Source: Lactobacillus sp. (GTDB lineage Bacteria; Bacillota; Bacilli; Lactobacillales; Lactobacillaceae). From it: a stretch of DNA of 64,000 bases. Positions 15,097 through 38,370 of this stretch are shown piece by piece. Under the pieces are notes generated by a model. It saw only the letters and a list, made by a program, of their open reading frames with translations, searched no databases and was not told where the DNA came from. A program made the position numbers and the translations under genes. Position 1 is the stretch's first letter; each line of letters starts with the position of its first letter. Location: assembly GCF_014803895.1 (NCBI RefSeq), contig NZ_JAAVAU010000017.1, positions 62,001 to 126,000 of the forward strand. Direction: 5' to 3'.

Positions 15097-15424
15097 AAAA
15101 ATACCTCTACTTATACAAGTTAAGCATTAAAAATAAATTGATATAAGTATTTTACATTAAATTAGTTCGTCAGCACAATTATGGAACTAAAGTGATCGTG
15201 TGGTAAGCTTATAGATATACTACAGAATAGAGGAAAAATAAAAAGTAGAAAGAAAATGTTGGTAAAAAATATTGTAACAGTAAGATATTAGTGTGGTTGT
15301 ACAGTATCTGTACTATGGCTTTTTATTTATCAAAAAATTATAGAATAAAAGCGTAAATATTAATAGATACTTGAAAATACTAATTTCTAAATAATTTTGT
15401 TATAAGTGTATAAGGAGAATTAGG
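15097..15424. other. Intergenic region between LysR gene and cas3
   Basis: No gene of useful length is visible. A small hairpin GTACAG-TAT-CTGTAC (15299-15313) is followed within a few bases by a T-rich stretch and might be a weak terminator or attenuator ahead of cas3. TTGAAA at 15371 is a possible -35, but no well-spaced -10 follows. I see no CRISPR-repeat-like sequence here, unlike the cas3-cse1 gap. Confidence 0.4.
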
Positions 15425-18178
15425 ATGGAACAAATAACCTTATCTAAACAAGCATTATCTTTATGGGGTAAGAAAAAAGTTAATCATAATAACGAAAAAC
15501 AATGGTTGCCATTAGTTGCGCACTTAGTTGATACCAAGAATGTTATTGGCTGGTTATACAATCACTGGCTTGATACTGGACAAAGAAATATTTTGAACAA
15601 AATTTTTGATAATAGTGATGATATTCAAAATCTGGTTGCATTTTTAGGCTATATTCATGATATTGGAAAGGCTACCCCAGCTTTTCAAACTAAGGAATCC
15701 TTTGTACATAATAAAGATTTAGACCAAGAGTTATTAGAAAAACTTATAAGGAACGGTTTTACTGGATTAGATGACTTAAATTTACAGGAGCCACGTAAGT
15801 CACTTCATGCTGTAGCAGGGGAGACAATTTTAGAAAATGCAGGTTTATGTGAAAGTGTCGGCGCCATTATTGGTGGACACCATGGTAAACCTCAAGAAGA
15901 ATATTTTGATTATGAAGATCAATTAGATAATTACACTGCTAATTATTATCAGTCTGATATGTATAAAGAAAATCCTACCCGTGAAAAATGGGAAAGAGTA
16001 CAAAATGAGTTAATTAATTACGGATTATCATTATGTAATTTAAATAGTCTTGAAGATATTCCAGAAATAACTCAACCACAGGCGGTTATCTTGGAAGGCT
16101 TAGTCATTATGGCTGACTGGTTGGCTTCAAGTGAGTTTATTATAAAAGATGAACAAAAAATACCTCTATTTCCATTAATTTCTGTTGATCAAGGTTTTAC
16201 AGATATTGATGAAACTCAAAGATACCATCAAGGGATTATGAATTGGCTTAATACAGATTCATGGACTCCTCAACCAATCCTTCAACCTGAAAAGCAATAT
16301 CAGAAACGTTGGAATTTTAATCCCAGAGCTGTACAACAAGAAATGTCTAAAATAATAGGTGACAGCGTTGATCCGGGAATGATAATCATTGAAGCACCAA
16401 TGGGTATTGGTAAAACAGAAATTGCTTTAATGGCTGTAGAGCAACTAGCTGCTAAAACTGGGAGAAATGGTCTTTTCTTTGGCTTGCCTACTCAAGCAAC
16501 TTCGAATGCTATGTTTGAAAGAGTTGATAAATGGCTTAATGAAATTGCAGAAGAGGAAGATATTAAAATCCCAATTAAATTAATGCATGGGAAAGCTCAA
16601 TTTAATAAAAAATATCGCAAAATTCCTAAGGCAGAGAACATTGAATCAGATGAAGGCTCAGTTGTAGTTAATGAGTGGTTCAATGGAAAAAAGTCAATTT
16701 TAACTGACTTTGTAATTGGAACTATTGATCAATTACTTTTAATGGGATTAAAGCAGAAACATTTAGCTTTGCGACATTTGGGACTAAGTGGCAAAGTTGT
16801 AGTTATTGATGAAGTCCACGCTTATGATACTTATATGGATTCCTATTTAGAAAAAGCAATTGAATGGTTGGGAGCGTATAATGTTTCTGTGATTGCTTTA
16901 TCTGCTACTTTGCCTGTAGCTAAAAGAAATAGTTTGTTAAAAGCATATGCTAAGGGAAAATACGGTAGTAAAAAATTTAAAACTAAGGATGATAGTTGGC
17001 AATCATGTCAAGCATATCCATTACTTAGCATGTTAGATGGGCGAAAATTAATACAAACAACAGAATTTGAAGCACCTAAGACACCAACTCATGTCGCAGT
17101 AACTCGCTTAAATGTTGAAGATGATAAAGTAATTAAGCAAGTCAATAATAAGATAAAAAATGGTGGGGTAGCTGGTGTTATTGTCAATACTGTTAAGAGA
17201 GCGCAGATGTTAGCACAAATTGCGAAAGAAAAAGTAGATAATGATACACAAGTTTTACTCTTACATTCAGCGTTTTTAGCTACAGATAGAAGTAAACGCG
17301 AAGATGATCTTCAAGACTTAATTGGCAAGGGAAAACAAAGACCTCAAAAATTAATTGTTATTGGTACTCAAGTTTTAGAACAATCTCTAGATATTGACTT
17401 TGATGTAATGTTTACAGATATTGCACCAATAGACTTGATTTTACAAAGAGCAGGCCGTCTACATCGTCACCAAATTGATAGACCACAAGGTTTAGAAAAT
17501 CCACGGCTTTATGTAATGGGTATTAAGAGTTTGGGGGACTACGATGAAGGAACTGAAGCTATTTATGAACAGTATCTTTTAATGAAGACAGATTACTTTT
17601 TGAAAGATGAAATTGATTTACCTAGCGATATTTCTCCACTGGTTCAAGACGTATATTCTGAGGATACTGATTCTGAGGTTGAAAATATTGCAGAAGCTAA
17701 GGCAAAATTAGATGTTGATCAACATGAAGCTAAAAGGAAAGCTAGAGGATATCAAATTATGCCACCTGAGGATGACGAAACTTTGCATGGTTGGCTAGAT
17801 AATTCAAACAAGGCTTCTGAACTTAGTGACATTAAAGCTGAAGCTGCAGTGAGAGATACCCAAGAAAGTATTGAAGTTATTTTACTTCGTAAGAAAGATA
17901 ATGATTATTACTTGCTGAGCGGAGAAAATATCAAAGATGTGTCTGATGATATTGTGGCGCAACAAATAATTCGTTTGCCACATGCATTGACAATGGATAT
18001 AGAGAAGTCCATCGAAACTTTAGAAAGTATTACCCAAACTAATTTTCCAGGATGGAAAGATAGTGTATGGCTTCGTGGAGCAATAGCTTTAGTATTAGAT
18101 GAAAATAATGAAGTTGAATTTGGAAATTATAAAGTTAAGTATTCTTCTGATTTTGGATTAAGTTATGAAAAAGTGTAA
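15425..18178 (+). CDS. cas3: CRISPR-associated nuclease/helicase Cas3, type I-E
   Basis: 917 residues, normal for type I-E. The N-terminal HD nuclease domain shows YIHDIGK (His78-Asp79) and GGHHGKP near 156. The SF2 helicase shows Walker A APMGIGKT near 326, the DEVH box near 461, an SAT-type motif (LSATLP) and motif VI QRAGRLHRH near 675. Cas3 is recruited by Cascade bound to target DNA, then unwinds and degrades it. A good AAGGAG precedes the ATG. It is separated from cse1 by its own downstream regulatory RNA and terminator, so nuclease and Cascade are probably transcribed separately. Confidence 0.97.
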   Translation: MEQITLSKQALSLWGKKKVNHNNEKQWLPLVAHLVDTKNVIGWLYNHWLDTGQRNILNKIFDNSDDIQNLVAFLGYIHDIGKATPAFQTKESFVHNKDLDQELLEKLIRNGFTGLDDLNLQEPRKSLHAVAGETILENAGLCESVGAIIGGHHGKPQEEYFDYEDQLDNYTANYYQSDMYKENPTREKWERVQNELINYGLSLCNLNSLEDIPEITQPQAVILEGLVIMADWLASSEFIIKDEQKIPLFPLISVDQGFTDIDETQRYHQGIMNWLNTDSWTPQPILQPEKQYQKRWNFNPRAVQQEMSKIIGDSVDPGMIIIEAPMGIGKTEIALMAVEQLAAKTGRNGLFFGLPTQATSNAMFERVDKWLNEIAEEEDIKIPIKLMHGKAQFNKKYRKIPKAENIESDEGSVVVNEWFNGKKSILTDFVIGTIDQLLLMGLKQKHLALRHLGLSGKVVVIDEVHAYDTYMDSYLEKAIEWLGAYNVSVIALSATLPVAKRNSLLKAYAKGKYGSKKFKTKDDSWQSCQAYPLLSMLDGRKLIQTTEFEAPKTPTHVAVTRLNVEDDKVIKQVNNKIKNGGVAGVIVNTVKRAQMLAQIAKEKVDNDTQVLLLHSAFLATDRSKREDDLQDLIGKGKQRPQKLIVIGTQVLEQSLDIDFDVMFTDIAPIDLILQRAGRLHRHQIDRPQGLENPRLYVMGIKSLGDYDEGTEAIYEQYLLMKTDYFLKDEIDLPSDISPLVQDVYSEDTDSEVENIAEAKAKLDVDQHEAKRKARGYQIMPPEDDETLHGWLDNSNKASELSDIKAEAAVRDTQESIEVILLRKKDNDYYLLSGENIKDVSDDIVAQQIIRLPHALTMDIEKSIETLESITQTNFPGWKDSVWLRGAIALVLDENNEVEFGNYKVKYSSDFGLSYEKV

Positions 18179-18181
18179 AAT
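18153..18181 (+). promoter_or_regulatory. Candidate promoter of the CreR-like RNA
   Basis: TTGGAT (18153-18158) and TAAAAT (18176-18181) are separated by exactly 17 bases. They overlap the end of cas3 and predict a transcription start at about 18188, the first base of the degenerate CRISPR repeat. Confidence 0.65.
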
Positions 18182-18187
18182 GTAAGG

Positions 18188-18295
18188 GTGATCCTCATGT
18201 AGGTGAGGGTGATCCTGTTAGTTATATTTCTAAAGAGTAATCCTCATTTTATGAGGCGGCGATATCAATTAAGTGATGTTGCCTTTTTATTTTTT
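18188..18295 (+). ncRNA. CreR-like cas-regulating pseudo-crRNA
   Basis: The unit consists of a degenerate repeat at 18188-18215 (28 nt), a pseudo-spacer at 18217-18236, a second repeat-like hairpin at 18237-18266 and a terminator. The first repeat keeps type I-E architecture: a 6-bp stem (18193-18198 with 18203-18208), a 4-nt loop and the 3' handle GTGATCCT (18209-18216) that Cas6e would leave on a crRNA. The pseudo-spacer matches 18346-18361, just downstream of the cse1 -10 box, with mismatches only at positions 6 and 12 of the first 16. The matched strand is preceded by AAA. I infer that Cascade loaded with this RNA represses the cse1 operon without cutting it. CreR-type RNAs are known in other CRISPR subtypes; no CreT-like toxin gene is visible. 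Confidence 0.75.
18258..18295 (+). terminator. Terminator after the CreR-like RNA
   Basis: GGCGATATC (18258-18266) pairs along 9 bases with GATGTTGCC (18275-18283), including G-T pairs, followed by a T-rich tail to 18295. Its left arm overlaps the second pseudo-repeat. Confidence 0.72.
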
Positions 18296-18316
18296 ATAAA
18301 ACACTTGTAAATGACT

Positions 18317-18366
18317 TTGTTAAGATGTATTTTTTAAATATAAATGTTAGATATATATCTATAAAA
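18317..18366 (+). promoter_or_regulatory. cse1 operon promoter with pseudo-spacer target
   Basis: TTGTTA (18317-18322) and TATAAA (18339-18344) are 16 bases apart. The sequence matching the pseudo-spacer begins at 18346, covering the likely start point and running toward the ribosome-binding site. The three bases 18342-18344 are AAA, a PAM reported for Lactobacillus type I-E systems to my recollection. Confidence 0.65.
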
Positions 18367-18380
18367 AGGAGTGATAATGA

Positions 18381-20072
18381 GTGAATAGTAAATTGCGTTT
18401 TAATTTGGTAACAGATCCATGGATCAAAGTAATCAGTAAAGATGATTATGCTGAAAAAGAGATCTCCCTAACTGAATTATTTCAAAATATTGGTAAATAT
18501 TATCAACTTACTGGTGATACCCGCGCTCAAGATTTAGCGATACTGCGTTTTTTATTATCGATACTTTTAACTGTCTATACTCGTTTTGATGCTGATGATG
18601 AACAGTATGAGTGGTTAAAATTAGATGATAAATGGCGAGTGGTTGAGATAGATGATGATATCGATAAGTTGAATAAGATATTATTGAAAACTTGGAAGCA
18701 AATTTATAAACAGCAGGGTTTCACTGATAAAGTAGTAGAGTATTTAAATAAGTACAAGAATAAATTTGATTTATTTGGCGATACTCCCTTTTATCAGGTT
18801 ACTAGAGAAGTATATGATCAAAATGTTGATGCTAAAAAGCAAGTTTCTAAAGGAAAAGGTACAGTAGCCGTTAAGCAGATAAATCGCAGAATCTCTGAAA
18901 GCAATAACACACCGTCTATATTCTCTCCTAAATCCGAAGAGGAGAAAAATAAAACGAACTTTGCTGAATTAACGAGATGGTTGATTACCTATCAGAATTT
19001 TTCTGGAGTTACTGATAAAACTAAGGTATCCTCAAAAGAAAAATTTTCAGTATCCAAGGGATGGCTATATTCGATTTCTCCTGTTTTTGTTAAGGGCAAT
19101 GACTTATTTGAAACATTAATGTTCAATTTAACATTGATAAATGATAAAGATGAAGACCTAAGAGTACTTAAGCAAAAACCAGTTTGGGAATATGAAGATA
19201 TTAATGAATATATTCAGCGTCGATTGACTGCGAAGTTTCCTGACAATTTGGCAGAATTATATACACTCTGGAGTAGGATGCTCCATATTGAGTGGGATGA
19301 GGATAAACCAACTATTTTTACTGCTGGATTACCAAAAGTTGATAGTGATGGAATCTTTTTAGAACCAATGACTACCTGGCGTAAAGATAAAAAAGGTGTA
19401 GAAAGTCCAGCGACTAAGAATAGAAATAATTTAAATATTGCTATGTGGCGTAATTTTGGTCAATATGTACCAGTTGCTGTGAAAAAAAATGATGATGACC
19501 CACGTACTCCAATAATGGTAAATTGGATTCGGAATCTTAAAAATAAGGGGTTTATTCCTAAACTTAGAAGTATAAACTTAGTTTCTGTAGCGATGATTAG
19601 TGATGGAAATACCTCGCAATCTCCATATGCAGAAGTAGTCAATAATATGGAAGCTGAAGCTGGGGTATTATTTGACGATGATCATGAATTTGCTAAAAGA
19701 TGGCCTGTAAAAATTGAATCTGTAGTTATAGATACGCAAAAAATTGCAAGTTATTTCTACTGGTTTGCAAAAGAATTTTCTGAACTTCGAGGCATAAAAG
19801 ATAATAGCTGGGCCAATAAAGCAACAGCACGGTTTTATGATCAGTTGAATATACCGTTTTATGCATGGCTTTCGAGTTTAACGAATGATGACGATCGTGA
19901 GGTTAAAGTCAAAGAATGGCGAAAAATTTTAACCCAAATCGTTACTCAGCAAGCTAGAGAAATCTTTACATTATCAGCTTCACAGGAAATAATTGGTAGA
20001 GATAAGCAGAATGTCTTTACTATCTATAATAAATTAAGAAGAAATATACATGTATATTTCAAATCAAAGTAA
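18381..20072 (+). CDS. cse1: Cascade large subunit Cse1 (CasA, Cas8e)
   Basis: 563 residues. The N-terminal segment FNLVTDPWIKVI is typical of Cse1, which recognises the PAM and recruits Cas3. The start is a GTG nine bases after AAGGAG; the nearby ATG at 18377 is out of frame. It heads the seven-gene Cascade/adaptation operon, with nine bases to cse2. Confidence 0.93.
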   Translation: MNSKLRFNLVTDPWIKVISKDDYAEKEISLTELFQNIGKYYQLTGDTRAQDLAILRFLLSILLTVYTRFDADDEQYEWLKLDDKWRVVEIDDDIDKLNKILLKTWKQIYKQQGFTDKVVEYLNKYKNKFDLFGDTPFYQVTREVYDQNVDAKKQVSKGKGTVAVKQINRRISESNNTPSIFSPKSEEEKNKTNFAELTRWLITYQNFSGVTDKTKVSSKEKFSVSKGWLYSISPVFVKGNDLFETLMFNLTLINDKDEDLRVLKQKPVWEYEDINEYIQRRLTAKFPDNLAELYTLWSRMLHIEWDEDKPTIFTAGLPKVDSDGIFLEPMTTWRKDKKGVESPATKNRNNLNIAMWRNFGQYVPVAVKKNDDDPRTPIMVNWIRNLKNKGFIPKLRSINLVSVAMISDGNTSQSPYAEVVNNMEAEAGVLFDDDHEFAKRWPVKIESVVIDTQKIASYFYWFAKEFSELRGIKDNSWANKATARFYDQLNIPFYAWLSSLTNDDDREVKVKEWRKILTQIVTQQAREIFTLSASQEIIGRDKQNVFTIYNKLRRNIHVYFKSK

Positions 20073-20081
20073 GGGGATAGT

Positions 20082-20735
20082 ATGAGTAACAAAAAGAATA
20101 CTATTCGTTCTATAACAGCACGAATAATTTATCAACTATATAATAATGGAGAAATTAATAAAGGCGTTTTGGCTACATTAAGAAGAACTACTTCTATGGC
20201 TGATAAAGGAGCTGAAAAAGTTTGGCCATTTATTTTTGATAATATAGCAACTGATAATAAAAATGCGCAGATTAATATTTTGAGTACAAATGGTAATCCT
20301 ACTAGACAGGAAAATGCTATTTATACGGCATTACATTGTTATGCAATGTTTCAACAAGGAATTGACCAAACATGTGTATACGCTGCTTCCACTACTAGAA
20401 AAGATGAAGAAGGGTCCGAAGAAAAAGGTCTTACGCTTTTTAGCGCCTTAAGAATGGTGAAAAATAGTGATTCTAAAGTTGCAGAAGCTTTAGATAGACG
20501 AGTAACAGTACTGTTAGCGACAACAAACATAAATAGTGCTATTAAATCAATCACTCATTTGGTAAGTATGCTTAAAGGCAAAAAACTAGGATTCAAAATT
20601 GATTTTGCCCAATTAGCCAGTGACTTAAATGTGTTTCAGATTAGCCCCAAGACAGCTAGAGAAATTGCTTTAAAGTGGGGAAGAGATTATTACTGGAATA
20701 CCTATGCACTAAAAAATCAAAATGAAGAAAATTAA
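20082..20735 (+). CDS. cse2: Cascade small subunit Cse2 (CasB)
   Basis: 217 residues, helical, with the early LRRTTSMADKGAEKVWPFIF segment and a late SPKTAREIALKWGRDYY segment characteristic of Cse2. Two copies stabilise the displaced strand in type I-E Cascade. It lies between cse1 and cas7 as usual. Confidence 0.9.
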   Translation: MSNKKNTIRSITARIIYQLYNNGEINKGVLATLRRTTSMADKGAEKVWPFIFDNIATDNKNAQINILSTNGNPTRQENAIYTALHCYAMFQQGIDQTCVYAASTTRKDEEGSEEKGLTLFSALRMVKNSDSKVAEALDRRVTVLLATTNINSAIKSITHLVSMLKGKKLGFKIDFAQLASDLNVFQISPKTAREIALKWGRDYYWNTYALKNQNEEN

Positions 20736-22583: not shown

Positions 22584-25121
<2,538 letters not shown>

Positions 25122-25150: not shown

Positions 25151-25171
25151 GTATTCCCCACGAATGTGGTG
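25151..25171 (+). CRISPR. Truncated type I-E repeat after cas2
   Basis: GTATTCCCCACGAATGTGG (25151-25169) matches the first two thirds of lactobacillar type I-E repeats, in cas-operon orientation, 29 bases after the cas2 stop. The CCAC-GAAT-GTGG palindrome is intact, but the expected GGTGATCC end is absent; T-rich sequence follows. It is a single partial copy with no array. With the following T-run it may also work as a terminator for the cas operon. Confidence 0.65.
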
Positions 25172-25284: not shown

Positions 25285-26448
25285 TTATTTTTTCATAAAG
25301 TTGTTTAAATATGATTCAAATTTATCATCACTATCTTTTTTGTCTTCATCTGCAAGATATGCATAGATACTTAAAGTGGTCTGTAAATTTTTGTGACCAA
25401 GTCTATGACTGATTGAGTACCAATCAACAGGTAAATTGTTTTGTTTAAAAAGGTGATGAAGTAAGGCTACATGGCAGTGACGTAAGCTGTGAAAGTGGAA
25501 ATCACCTAAATCTATTTTTAATTGACTAAGATACTCTCTTAGAAGCTCATTAAGACCTTTTGAGGCAGGAACGTAGGGCGGCTGTTTAGGATAACCGAAA
25601 ACTAAATTTAAATCATTTTTATTAGGTTTTAATTCTTTCAAGATATTTAGTAACTCATCATTTACTCTTATAGTTCGATATGAACTGTCATTTTTAAGAC
25701 CTTTAAGCAATTCTGGAGTTTTCTTAATGCGGTGATAGTTAAAGGCTTTATCAATTTTGATTGTTTTATGAGTAAAATCTATTTTATTCCATCTTAATCC
25801 TGCAATTTCACCTACACGCATTCCAGTAGCAATTGCTGTGATAATCATATAATTTTCAGGTTGGGTAGGATTTCTAGTTTCAGTAACTAGTTTAAGAAGA
25901 GCTTGAATTTGTGAGACGCTGGGATAGATAATTTTCATTTTTCTATCTTTATTACCTTTAGCATAAATTCCAGCCGTGAAATCTTTATATATGACACCAT
26001 CTTGAATTGCTGCGTTTACACATGATCTTGTAATAGATAGGTAGTGGTTGACTGATTGCTGTGCATGATTAGCTGCAAATTTATTTAAAGCCTCTTGATA
26101 CCTCATTCTAGTGATTTTATCCATGGTAAGGATGCCAAATTCTTTTTGTATTTGTTTATGTAAGGCGTAATATCTTTCGGCAGATCTAGGCTCTATTTTA
26201 GGAATTTTATAAGTCTCAGCCCATTTTATAAAGTAATCGGCAAACTTGGGTGTCTTAGGCTGTTGGATTAATCCACGGGTTCCTTTTAACTCATACTCAG
26301 TACCCCAAGCTTTAGCTTCGCGTTTGGTTTTAAAGCCTTGCTTACTTTTTTGCTTTTTAATAGGCTTTCCATTTTCATCTAAGTCATAGGGATCTCTCCA
26401 AGTTGCGCGTGCAAGCCAACCGCCATTTCTTTGTGTTATGTAAACCAT
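25285..26448 (-). CDS. int: Phage tyrosine-recombinase integrase
   Basis: 387 residues with an N-terminal arm-binding domain, a SAM-like core-binding domain and a catalytic domain. Catalytic residues are visible: Arg211 in GMRVGEIAGLRW, His320 and Arg323 in HSLRH, His352 in LGHKN and nucleophile Tyr362 in SIYAYL. It reads toward cas2, placing attL between them. It catalyses insertion and excision of the prophage. Confidence 0.96.
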   Translation of the reverse strand: MVYITQRNGGWLARATWRDPYDLDENGKPIKKQKSKQGFKTKREAKAWGTEYELKGTRGLIQQPKTPKFADYFIKWAETYKIPKIEPRSAERYYALHKQIQKEFGILTMDKITRMRYQEALNKFAANHAQQSVNHYLSITRSCVNAAIQDGVIYKDFTAGIYAKGNKDRKMKIIYPSVSQIQALLKLVTETRNPTQPENYMIITAIATGMRVGEIAGLRWNKIDFTHKTIKIDKAFNYHRIKKTPELLKGLKNDSSYRTIRVNDELLNILKELKPNKNDLNLVFGYPKQPPYVPASKGLNELLREYLSQLKIDLGDFHFHSLRHCHVALLHHLFKQNNLPVDWYSISHRLGHKNLQTTLSIYAYLADEDKKDSDDKFESYLNNFMKK

Positions 26449-37971: not shown

Positions 37972-38067
37972 GGAGTTATACCCAAGTGGTTTAAGGGGCG
38001 GTCTTGCTAAGACTGTAGACGATGCAGTTAATGTTATCGTGCGAAGGTTCAAATCCTTCTGGCTCCG
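37972..38067 (+). tRNA. tRNA-Ser (anticodon GCU)
   Basis: The 7-bp acceptor (GGAGTTA with TGGCTCC), the anticodon loop TTGCTAA, a long variable arm as in class II tRNAs, and a good T-arm (GGTTCAAATCC) are all present. CCA is not encoded. Carried by the prophage. Confidence 0.88.
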
Positions 38068-38142
38068 TTGCTACTGAAAAGTAGCATTAGAGATATATCC
38101 AATAATTTAACTACTATCTACCGGGCACAACACCCGGGTTAT

Positions 38143-38211
38143 GTGGAAGTAGCTCAAAAGGTAGTAGCACCTAGGTCCCAGGTTATGCCGGTTCGAGTCC
38201 GGCCTTTCGCA
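38143..38211 (+). tRNA. tRNA-like element, probably degenerate
   Basis: A 7-bp acceptor (GTGGAAG with CTTTCGC) and a perfect T-arm (GCCGG TTCGAGT CCGGC) are clear, but the element is only 69 nt. The anticodon arm pairs over 4 bp (ACCT/AGGT) with loop AGGTCCC, lacking U33, so the identity cannot be read reliably. Confidence 0.5.
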
Positions 38212-38213
38212 TT

Positions 38214-38285
38214 ATCGTCCGTATCTTATAAAGAAGGGAGGATACTTCCTTCTTAAAGCAATAAATTCAACATAGCACGGACGAT
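38214..38285 (+). other. Long hairpin between tRNA-like element and tRNA-Tyr
   Basis: ATCGTCCGT (38214-38222) pairs perfectly with ACGGACGAT (38277-38285); inside, AAGAAGG (38231-38237) pairs with CCTTCTT (38248-38254). It may aid tRNA processing or belong to the large RNA. Confidence 0.5.
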
Positions 38286-38289
38286 TTAA

Positions 38290-38370
38290 GGCAGTGTAGC
38301 AAAGCGGCAAACGCAGCAGACTGTAAATCTGTTCTCATCGAGTTCGTTGGTTCGAGTCCAACCACTGCCA
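38290..38370 (+). tRNA. tRNA-Tyr (anticodon GUA)
   Basis: Acceptor GGCAGTG with CACTGCC, anticodon loop CTGTAAA, a long variable arm typical of bacterial tRNA-Tyr and T-arm GTTGG TTCGAGT CCAAC. CCA is not encoded. Confidence 0.9.

What the first reader, a model, noticed from the sequence alone, without database searches (positions are those of the whole stretch)
18153..18366. CreR-like autoregulatory crRNA gene between cas3 and cse1 of a type I-E system
Seen: promoter TTGGAT-17-TAAAAT predicting +1 at about 18188; a 28-nt repeat-like element starting there; 8-nt handle GTGATCCT; pseudo-spacer 18217-18236; second repeat-like hairpin; terminator ending about 18295. The pseudo-spacer matches 18346-18361 at every one of the first 16 positions except 6 and 12. 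Known: type I-E Cascade flips out every sixth base, so those mismatches cost nothing, and incomplete pairing allows binding without cleavage. The target starts two bases after the cse1 -10 box and is preceded by AAA. Inference: Cascade with this RNA represses its own operon, and falling Cascade levels, for example under anti-CRISPR attack, would raise expression.
Basis: partly seen in the sequence, partly recalled or inferred. Interest (0 to 1): 0.97.

Follow-up and report, generated by a model that had tools for sequence, protein, structure and literature searches.

The report
Self-silencing CRISPR guide inside its operon
Between two CRISPR genes of a Lactobacillus-like bacterium lies a predicted miniature guide-RNA gene whose 20-base guide matches the start of its own defence operon, and relatives with quite different guides match their own operons in the same way, so the CRISPR complex is likely to turn down its own production.

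Summary
The cas3–cse1 gap (18179-18380) holds repeat (18188-18215), 20-nt pseudo-spacer (18217-18236), second repeat and terminator; the pseudo-spacer matches 18346-18361 except at positions 6 and 12, beside an AAT PAM. Chance is unlikely: 3 of 20,000 shuffles match as well, none with the AA PAM. A scan of 119 distinct loci finds such an element in 36, mostly upstream of cas3; decoys reached 13/15 in none of four runs. Across 27 distinct spacers, positions 6 and 12 match near chance, most others nearly always; the PAM is always AAY. Transcription, Cascade loading and repression are inferred. CreR autorepression in type I-E is already published, so this is a new, well-supported member; its place between cas3 and cse1 suggests that Cascade, but not Cas3, is autorepressed.

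The parts
15425..18178 (+). cas3, type I-E helicase-nuclease, 917 aa
   Evidence: NCBIfam TIGR01587 and TIGR01596 above cut-off; ORF
18153..18181 (+). possible guide-RNA promoter TTGGAT-17-TAAAAT, inside the 3' end of cas3; weak
   Evidence: not above the scan threshold
18188..18215 (+). first degenerate repeat of the mini-CRISPR; its 3' end GTGATCC is the array-type repeat end
18209..18216 (+). predicted 8-nt crRNA 5' handle GTGATCCT
   Evidence: register inferred from the hairpin and from position-6/12 periodicity
18217..18236 (+). pseudo-spacer, 20 nt (21 counted from the 28-nt repeat; array spacers of relatives such as L. hamsteri are 33)
   Evidence: array period 61
18237..18256 (+). second degenerate repeat (hairpin)
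18258..18293 (+). predicted intrinsic terminator of the guide-RNA gene
   Evidence: stem 18258-18283, then T-rich tail
18305..18333 (+). candidate cse1 promoter TTGTAA-17-TATTTT (the alternative TTGTTA 18317-18322 / TATAAA 18339-18344 is also possible); weak
   Evidence: aligned with L. hamsteri, similar in G013
18343..18345 (+). PAM AAT
   Evidence: all 27 distinct spacers of the set have AAC or AAT
18346..18365 (+). target of the pseudo-spacer; match 18346-18361 except positions 6 and 12
18366..18371 (+). ribosome-binding site AAGGAG of cse1
   Evidence: read from sequence
18381..20072 (+). cse1 (casA), first gene of the predicted regulated operon
   Evidence: TIGR02547 E 1.2e-15 though below cut-off; 1223 relatives, the named ones among the 120 listed mostly annotated Cse1/CasA
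20082..20735 (+). cse2 (casB)
   Evidence: TIGR02548
20722..21870 (+). cas7 (cse4, casC)
   Evidence: TIGR01869
21851..22573 (+). cas5e (casD)
   Evidence: TIGR01868
22584..23291 (+). cas6e (cse3), the predicted processing nuclease of the guide
   Evidence: TIGR01907
23293..24240 (+). cas1e
   Evidence: TIGR03638
24237..25121 (+). cas2e fused to a DnaQ-like exonuclease domain
   Evidence: TIGR01873 residues 1-85, DnaQ-type families about 108-290
25151..25169 (+). first repeat of the CRISPR array, cut off after 19 nt; prophage follows

Best explanation
The gap between cas3 and cse1 holds a repeat–20-nt spacer–repeat unit whose spacer matches the cse1 promoter region beside an AAT PAM at each of its first 16 positions except 6 and 12, and it most likely encodes a CreR-type guide RNA with which Cascade would repress its own cse1–cas2 operon. 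Shown by sequence: the unit, the match, the PAM, and the co-change of spacer and promoter region in relatives. Inferred: the RNA is transcribed from within the end of cas3 (or by cas3 read-through), ends at the predicted terminator, is cut by Cas6e, and is loaded into a Cascade that may be two Cas7 units short, since the guide is 12 nt shorter than array guides. This complex would bind at the start site of the cse1 operon. The match stops after about 16-17 nt, so Cas3 should not be licensed to cut. When Cascade is scarce, occupied by ordinary crRNAs or disabled by an anti-CRISPR, the promoter would open. Because the unit and its terminator lie behind cas3 and no such element is found just upstream of cas3 here, Cas3 would escape this control, unlike in the relatives where the element lies upstream of cas3.
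For: Match beyond chance (3 of 20,000 shuffles, 0 with PAM). Three relatives with the same unit in the same gap and other spacers, each matching its own promoter region at 14/15, 15/15 and 15/15; spacers on other loci reach 8-11 of 15. The gap itself is rare: of 108 distinct loci with a cas3 ORF of 780 aa or more, 5 have over 20 nt, one of these (L063) owing to an inner stop in cas3; the other four all carry the unit. Wider scan: 36 of 119 distinct loci at 12/15 or more, 31 at 13/15 or more; shuffled-spacer decoys 0 at 13 or more in four runs and 1.0 per run at 12. Leave-one-out profile over 27-32 elements: positions 1-5 96-100%, 6 41% (33% expected), 7-11 89-100%, 12 30% (32% expected), 13 100%; Fisher p 4.5e-25. 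With no PAM required, 21 of 24 hits at 14/15 or more have AA at -3/-2; all 21 have C or T at -1. Orthologous pairs change spacer and target together at paired positions (L024/L143/L144, L008/L011, L167/L168). Literature, passages only: E. coli Cascade binds with as few as 5 bp, over 18 bp are needed for interference, and every sixth base is flipped out (PMC5904413); 20-24 bp spacers repress without new-spacer uptake, and 24 bp without interference, in a type I-B system (PMC10989794); AAT is listed for Lactobacillus type I-E (PMC8482600).
Against: No transcript or expression data. The promoters are not better than chance. PMC5904413 saw no expression change at partly matched sites and cites work in which six PAM-distal mismatches greatly weaken promoter occlusion; here the match ends at about position 16-17. 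In the type I-B system of PMC10989794 a 20-bp spacer repressed much less (44-65% of mRNA left) than 21 bp (9-22%), and the guide here is 20 or 21 nt. Position 18 matches in 52% (32% expected), not at chance as a strict every-sixth rule would have it. The lowest-energy fold pairs the handle with upstream GGGU, which could hinder processing. The target contains a perfect 14-bp palindrome (18348-18361) that a protein could bind. 83 of 119 loci gave no such element at this sensitivity. The adjoining array is broken by a prophage, so the circuit may not run normally in this strain.
Confidence: 0.87

Rival explanations
1. The circuit is ancestral but idle in this strain: the unit is intact by descent, but the prophage in the first array repeat, a weak guide promoter or a misfolded handle leaves it without effect.
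For: Array repeat cut at 25151-25169 and followed by a prophage; weak promoters; handle paired in the lowest-energy fold.
Against: Spacer, PAM and target are still matched at 14/15, and all cas genes read as intact ORFs.
Confidence: 0.08
2. The promoter sequence is an operator for an ordinary protein repressor (perfect palindrome TAGATATATATCTA at 18348-18361) and the resemblance to the pseudo-spacer is secondary.
For: The palindrome is in the sequence; the minus strand reads 13/15 against the spacer because of it. G013's target has a 10-bp palindrome.
Against: Targets in L. hamsteri and L. agilis have no perfect palindrome over 6 bp, yet match their own spacers at 14/15 and 15/15; a protein site does not explain position-6/12 tolerance or AAY.
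Confidence: 0.03
3. A worn-out two-repeat array with a spacer taken by accident from the host's own DNA, or chance similarity.
For: The repeat is degenerate: 7 substitutions from an array-type repeat written from the truncated one at 25151.
Against: Four different spacers, four own promoter regions; 0 decoys at 13/15 or more; the short 21-22-nt spacer in three of the four is not array-like.
Confidence: 0.01
4. A CreTA-type pair: the guide holds down a small toxin rather than the cas operon.
For: Same logic and anatomy as CreA; a 3-codon ORF (ATGAGTGAATAG, 18377-18388) lies behind the target.
Against: The target starts 35 nt before cse1, with no room for a toxin gene between; in the upstream-type relatives the target is near cas3.
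Confidence: 0.01

Closest known systems
CreR, cas-regulating RNA from mini-CRISPRs (Liu et al. 2023, Cell Host Microbe, doi 10.1016/j.chom.2023.08.005; not held; known here from passages of PMC13131331, PMC12737573 and PMC12948488)
   Same: crRNA-like RNA of a mini-CRISPR, partly complementary to a cas promoter, repressing its own cas operon; reported for types I-B, I-E and V-A
   Different: Here between cas3 and cse1 with its own predicted terminator, so that Cascade but not Cas3 would be controlled; guide 20 nt; whether the published I-E cases include this arrangement or lactobacilli could not be checked
CreA/CreTA of haloarchaeal type I-B (PMC9458426, passages; PMC8501985, search listing only)
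   Same: Degenerate repeats round a spacer with partial match to a promoter; Cascade as repressor
   Different: The target there is a toxin RNA gene; here the cas operon itself
Long-form tracrRNA of type II-A (Workman et al. 2021; described in a passage of PMC8730458)
   Same: A natural guide represses its own cas promoter
   Different: Cas9 and tracrRNA, not Cascade and a mini-CRISPR
scaRNA of Francisella novicida (passage of PMC8730458)
   Same: Short complementarity gives repression, not cutting
   Different: Works with Cas9 and tracrRNA, regulates lipoprotein genes

Membership tests
CreR | repeat-spacer-repeat (or repeat-like) unit next to the cas genes, with the cognate repeat end | tested here: met
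CreR | spacer partly complementary to a promoter region of its own cas operon | tested here: met
   that the region is a promoter is itself inferred (one search finds only weak matches)
CreR | functional PAM beside the target | tested here: met
   AAT; 27 of 27 distinct spacers have AAY where AA was required; 21 of 24 hits AA without requiring it
CreR | match too short to license cutting | tested here: inconclusive
   match ends at about position 16-17; lack of cutting rests on PMC5904413 and PMC10989794, not on a test here
CreR | spacer and promoter co-evolve | tested here: met
CreR | expressed and processed small RNA | not testable with these tools
   no RNA data
CreR | Cascade-dependent repression of cas genes, relieved by crRNA competition or Acr | not testable with these tools
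   needs reporter or RNA measurements
CreTA | the target promoter drives a toxin gene | tested here: not met
   the target starts 35 nt before cse1, with no gene between
type I-E CRISPR-Cas | cas3, cse1, cse2, cas7, cas5, cas6e, cas1e, cas2e | tested here: met
   (cse1 under the curated cut-off; other evidence)

The most novel reading that the evidence does not exclude
Moving the self-silencing guide from in front of cas3 to behind it splits one immune operon in two: Cas3 is left free of feedback while Cascade and the spacer-acquisition genes become autorepressed, and the paired bases of guide and promoter co-evolve with a six-base beat that records Cascade's R-loop geometry. In this strain a prophage has cut the array at its first repeat, so that the silencing guide may be the main guide left to load, turning feedback control into lasting shut-off of the defence.
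Probability: 0.35. Interest if true: 0.75.

Novelty: new member of a known kind. Interest (0 to 1): 0.62.

Why it matters
It gives sequence evidence, through co-variation over 27 distinct guides, that RNA-guided self-repression of type I-E Cascade is under selection in lactobacilli and probably other Lactobacillales, and it shows which guide bases selection keeps: nearly all of the first 15 except 6 and 12, beside a pyrimidine-ended AAY PAM. That makes a clean bench test possible in food-grade lactobacilli, offers ready-made short guides for repression without cutting, and raises a new question: why a few lineages would exempt Cas3 from the feedback.

Tried and rejected
Chance match, array relic, protein operator and CreTA were tested as rivals (see there).

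The Rfam scan at gathering threshold gave only three tRNAs, no CRISPR or CreR family. The first genome-contig scan with Cse1 alone found no relative; the alignment scan found 75. A phage-record search with part of the prophage (25100-50000) found nothing. Window 15097-15424, upstream of cas3, was read and scanned for a second guide unit: none at 11/15 or more. For G013 a looser scan gave one 12/15 hit about 1.5 kb upstream of cas3, at the level of the decoys, and I did not count it. Apparent wide gaps rejected: L063 (inner stop; the frame behind it reads on as the end of cas3), L035 (cas3 ORF appears broken), L076/L103, L105 and L106 (no cas3 directly upstream). L105 and L106 were fetched but not put into the scan. 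Hits made of array repeats were removed by motif before the counts.

Counting: 131 locus entries, 126 after a first removal of identical ones; one search showed seven of the 126 to repeat another entry (six by the look of their contigs the same contig fetched twice, one a near-copy), leaving 119, and only these are used for counts of loci. Eleven of the 119 lack a cas3 ORF of 780 aa or more as found by the script and were left out of the 108 (L003, L026, L031, L035, L051, L060, L067, L075, L076, L078, L141). The tree was made on the earlier 114 rows. L026 counts among the 36 but is neither of the upstream nor of the between type.

An exact-pattern scan of viral contigs gave 0; the Cse1 scan there gave one contig, with an upstream-type match of 13/15. 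NCBIfam at E 0.001 gave no anti-CRISPR family for the 10 prophage proteins given, of 46 ORFs of 100 aa or more listed there. Literature searches for prior notice in lactobacilli turned up only the reviews named.
Full report
WHAT IS THERE. The window carries a type I-E operon: cas3 15425-18178, a 202-nt gap, cse1 18381-20072, cse2, cas7, cas5, cas6e, cas1 and a cas2 fused to a DnaQ-like domain, ending at 25121. The gap contains, in this order, a degenerate 28-nt repeat (18188-18215), a 20-nt pseudo-spacer after the 8-nt handle GTGATCCT (18217-18236), a second repeat-like hairpin (18237-18256), a terminator-like hairpin (stem 18258-18283), a putative promoter region, and the ribosome-binding site of cse1. 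The transcript 18186-18296, if made, folds far better than shuffles (z -6.5).

THE MATCH. The pseudo-spacer equals 18346-18361 at 14 of 16 positions; the two misses are 6 and 12. In the 8-nt-handle register the PAM is AAT. Scored over positions 1-17 without 6 and 12, it has 14 of 15; 3 of 20,000 dinucleotide shuffles of the downstream DNA reach that, none with AA at -3/-2. No other site in 64 kb has full seed and AAY PAM.

RELATIVES WITH THE SAME UNIT. Cse1 relatives were collected from public genomes (75 loci), three plasmids and unnamed whole genomes (regions). In nearly all of them cas3 and cse1 overlap or nearly touch. The four true gaps all carry repeat–spacer–repeat. Their spacers differ, and each matches its own cse1 promoter region: window, L004, G013 and L069 score 14, 14, 15 and 15 of 15 with PAMs AAT, AAC, AAT and AAT; spacers tried on the other loci reach 8 to 11 of 15. 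Shuffles reaching the observed score: 3, 2, 0 and 0 of 20,000; one of the two for L004 also had the AA. In L. agilis the misses among the first 18 positions are exactly 6, 12 and 18; in L. hamsteri they are 11, 12 and 18; in G013 only 18. An alignment of the three nearest loci shows conserved repeat ends and terminator region and diverged spacer and target.

THE SAME THING UPSTREAM OF cas3. A scan for hairpin plus GTGATCC-like handle followed by a spacer with an AA-PAM target within 400 nt on either strand gives an element in 36 of 119 distinct loci at 12/15 or more, 31 at 13/15 or more; four runs with shuffled spacers gave none at 13 or more and 1.0 per run at 12. An earlier wider scan gave 61 hits against 0 decoys, but many of the 61 were array repeats. 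In 31 of the 108 loci the element lies upstream of cas3, in four between cas3 and cse1; L026 could not be placed. The upstream set includes loci from the order-level search (L127, L132-L134, L136-L138) that form a separate deep Cas3 group and are probably outside Lactobacillaceae; the tool names no family. 73 of the 108 gave none, which may be absence or limited sensitivity.

THE SIX-BASE BEAT AND THE PAM. To avoid circularity, the match rate at each paired position was counted on elements selected by the other fourteen positions (12 or more of 14). Positions 1-5 match in 96-100%, 7-11 in 89-100%, 13 in 100%, 14 in 86%, 15 in 81%, 16 in 66%, 17 in 52%; positions 6 and 12, not used for selection, match in 41% and 30%, with 33% and 32% expected from base composition. 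Positions 18, 19 and 20 match in 52, 56 and 48% (32-34% expected), so the end of pairing is gradual and position 18 does not show the dip; 21-23 are at or below chance, 24 is 48% (33% expected). Fisher p for 6 and 12 against the pool of 1-5, 7-11 and 13 is 4.5e-25. Selection thus keeps about 13-15 paired bases and ignores 6 and 12, the first two that Cascade flips out (every sixth position, PMC5904413, passages). Without requiring a PAM, 21 of 24 hits at 14/15 or more have AA at -3/-2 (the other three CC), and the base at -1 is T or C in 21 of 21 (hits, a few from near-copies; the 19 distinct spacers at 14 or more are AAT 10 and AAC 9). In the set of 27 distinct spacers at 13 or more it is AAC 14 and AAT 13, where the background rate of a pyrimidine after AA is 0.40. 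PMC8482600 (passages) lists AAT for Lactobacillus and AAC for Bifidobacterium type I-E.

COMPENSATORY CHANGES. Among closely related upstream-type loci spacer and target change together: L024 and L144 differ at 6, 14 and 15 in both; L143 and L144 at 3 and 11 in both; L008 and L011 at 5 and 11; L167 and L168 at 5, 9 and 17. One-sided changes are listed in the same output, mostly at 6, 12, 16 and 17, but also at 9, 10 and 15 in some of these pairs. Where the spacer is identical (L001, L066, L171; L137, L138), targets differ only at 6, 12, 16 and 17. The summed counts of that call also include unrelated pairs and are biased by selection on the score; the orthologous pairs carry the argument.

TREE. 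In a Cas3 tree (quick method, 114 rows) the window, G013 and L. hamsteri form one supported group (99), all of the between type; L. agilis lies elsewhere in the wider 25-row group. Two changes are needed, but one origin is not ruled out by supported branches.

HOW IT LIKELY WORKS. Shown: sequence anatomy, match, PAM, co-variation. Inferred: transcription, Cas6e cutting, loading, binding at the start site, and repression. The guide is 20 nt, 12 less than the array type (array period 61 in relatives; lengths 21-22 from the 28-nt repeat in three of the four, 34 in L. agilis). In a type I-B system spacers of 20-24 bp repressed without uptake of new spacers, and 24 bp without interference; but 20 bp repressed much less than 21 bp (PMC10989794, passages). 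In E. coli more than 18 bp were needed for interference (PMC5904413). Against this, the same paper saw no expression effect at partly matched sites and cites weak occlusion with six PAM-distal mismatches, so the strength of repression is open. Because the unit and its terminator lie behind cas3, and no unit was found just upstream of cas3 in the four between-type loci (within 700 nt of the cas3 frame, 11/15 or more), only Cascade and cas1-cas2 would be repressed.

KNOWN OR NEW. CreR autorepression of type I-B, I-E and V-A is published (Liu et al. 2023; not held; statements from passages of PMC13131331, PMC12737573 and PMC12948488). The finding is therefore a new member of that kind. The position between cas3 and cse1, the AAY rule and the evolutionary six-base profile were not met in the passages and listings seen, but the main paper and its supplements could not be read.

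LIMITS. No genome is held for the window, so other arrays are unknown; the promoter calls are weak; no RNA data exist here.

Noticed in passing
window 25151-25170 and rightwards to 64000: The first repeat of the CRISPR array behind cas2 is cut off after 19 nt and followed by a prophage (integrase 25285-26448, repressor, antirepressor, terminase, portal, tape measure) that runs on to the end of the window; no array was found in the window. The prophage may sit in the array or have replaced it.
   Followed up: partly
31 loci, e.g. L001, L007, L023, L058, L066, L137, L170: Self-matching mini-CRISPRs upstream of cas3 with the same 6/12 mismatch habit; in several (e.g. L127, L136-L138) the target lies upstream of the element, in three (L020, L046, L133) on the other strand.
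   Followed up: yes
27 distinct spacers: The PAM of these regulatory targets is always AAC or AAT, never AAA or AAG.
   Followed up: partly
L081, about 1495-1580 (genome G053): A lone repeat, about 34-nt spacer and repeat away from the cas operon, repeat 96% like the window's over 28 nt; its target was not sought. The same genome has an upstream-type element at its cas3 (L144).
   Followed up: no
L004 5478-6275: In L. hamsteri an extra gene (265 aa, with HPFRDGNGR, recalled as a Fic-domain motif) lies between cas3 and the mini-CRISPR, followed by a terminator-like hairpin read by eye (not listed by the scan).
   Followed up: no
window 18348-18361: Perfect 14-bp palindrome TAGATATATATCTA within the target.
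   Followed up: partly
window 18377-18388: ATGAGTGAATAG, a three-codon ORF overlapping the GTG start of cse1; possible leader or start-site ambiguity.
   Followed up: no
window 37972-38370: Three tRNA genes inside the prophage (Rfam).
   Followed up: no
L176 (IMG/VR contig): A contig filed as viral carries a type I-E cas operon with an upstream-type element (13/15).
   Followed up: partly
L026, 92 nt before the cse1 match: Possible element with the target upstream of it (12/15) where no long cas3 ORF was found by the script.
   Followed up: no
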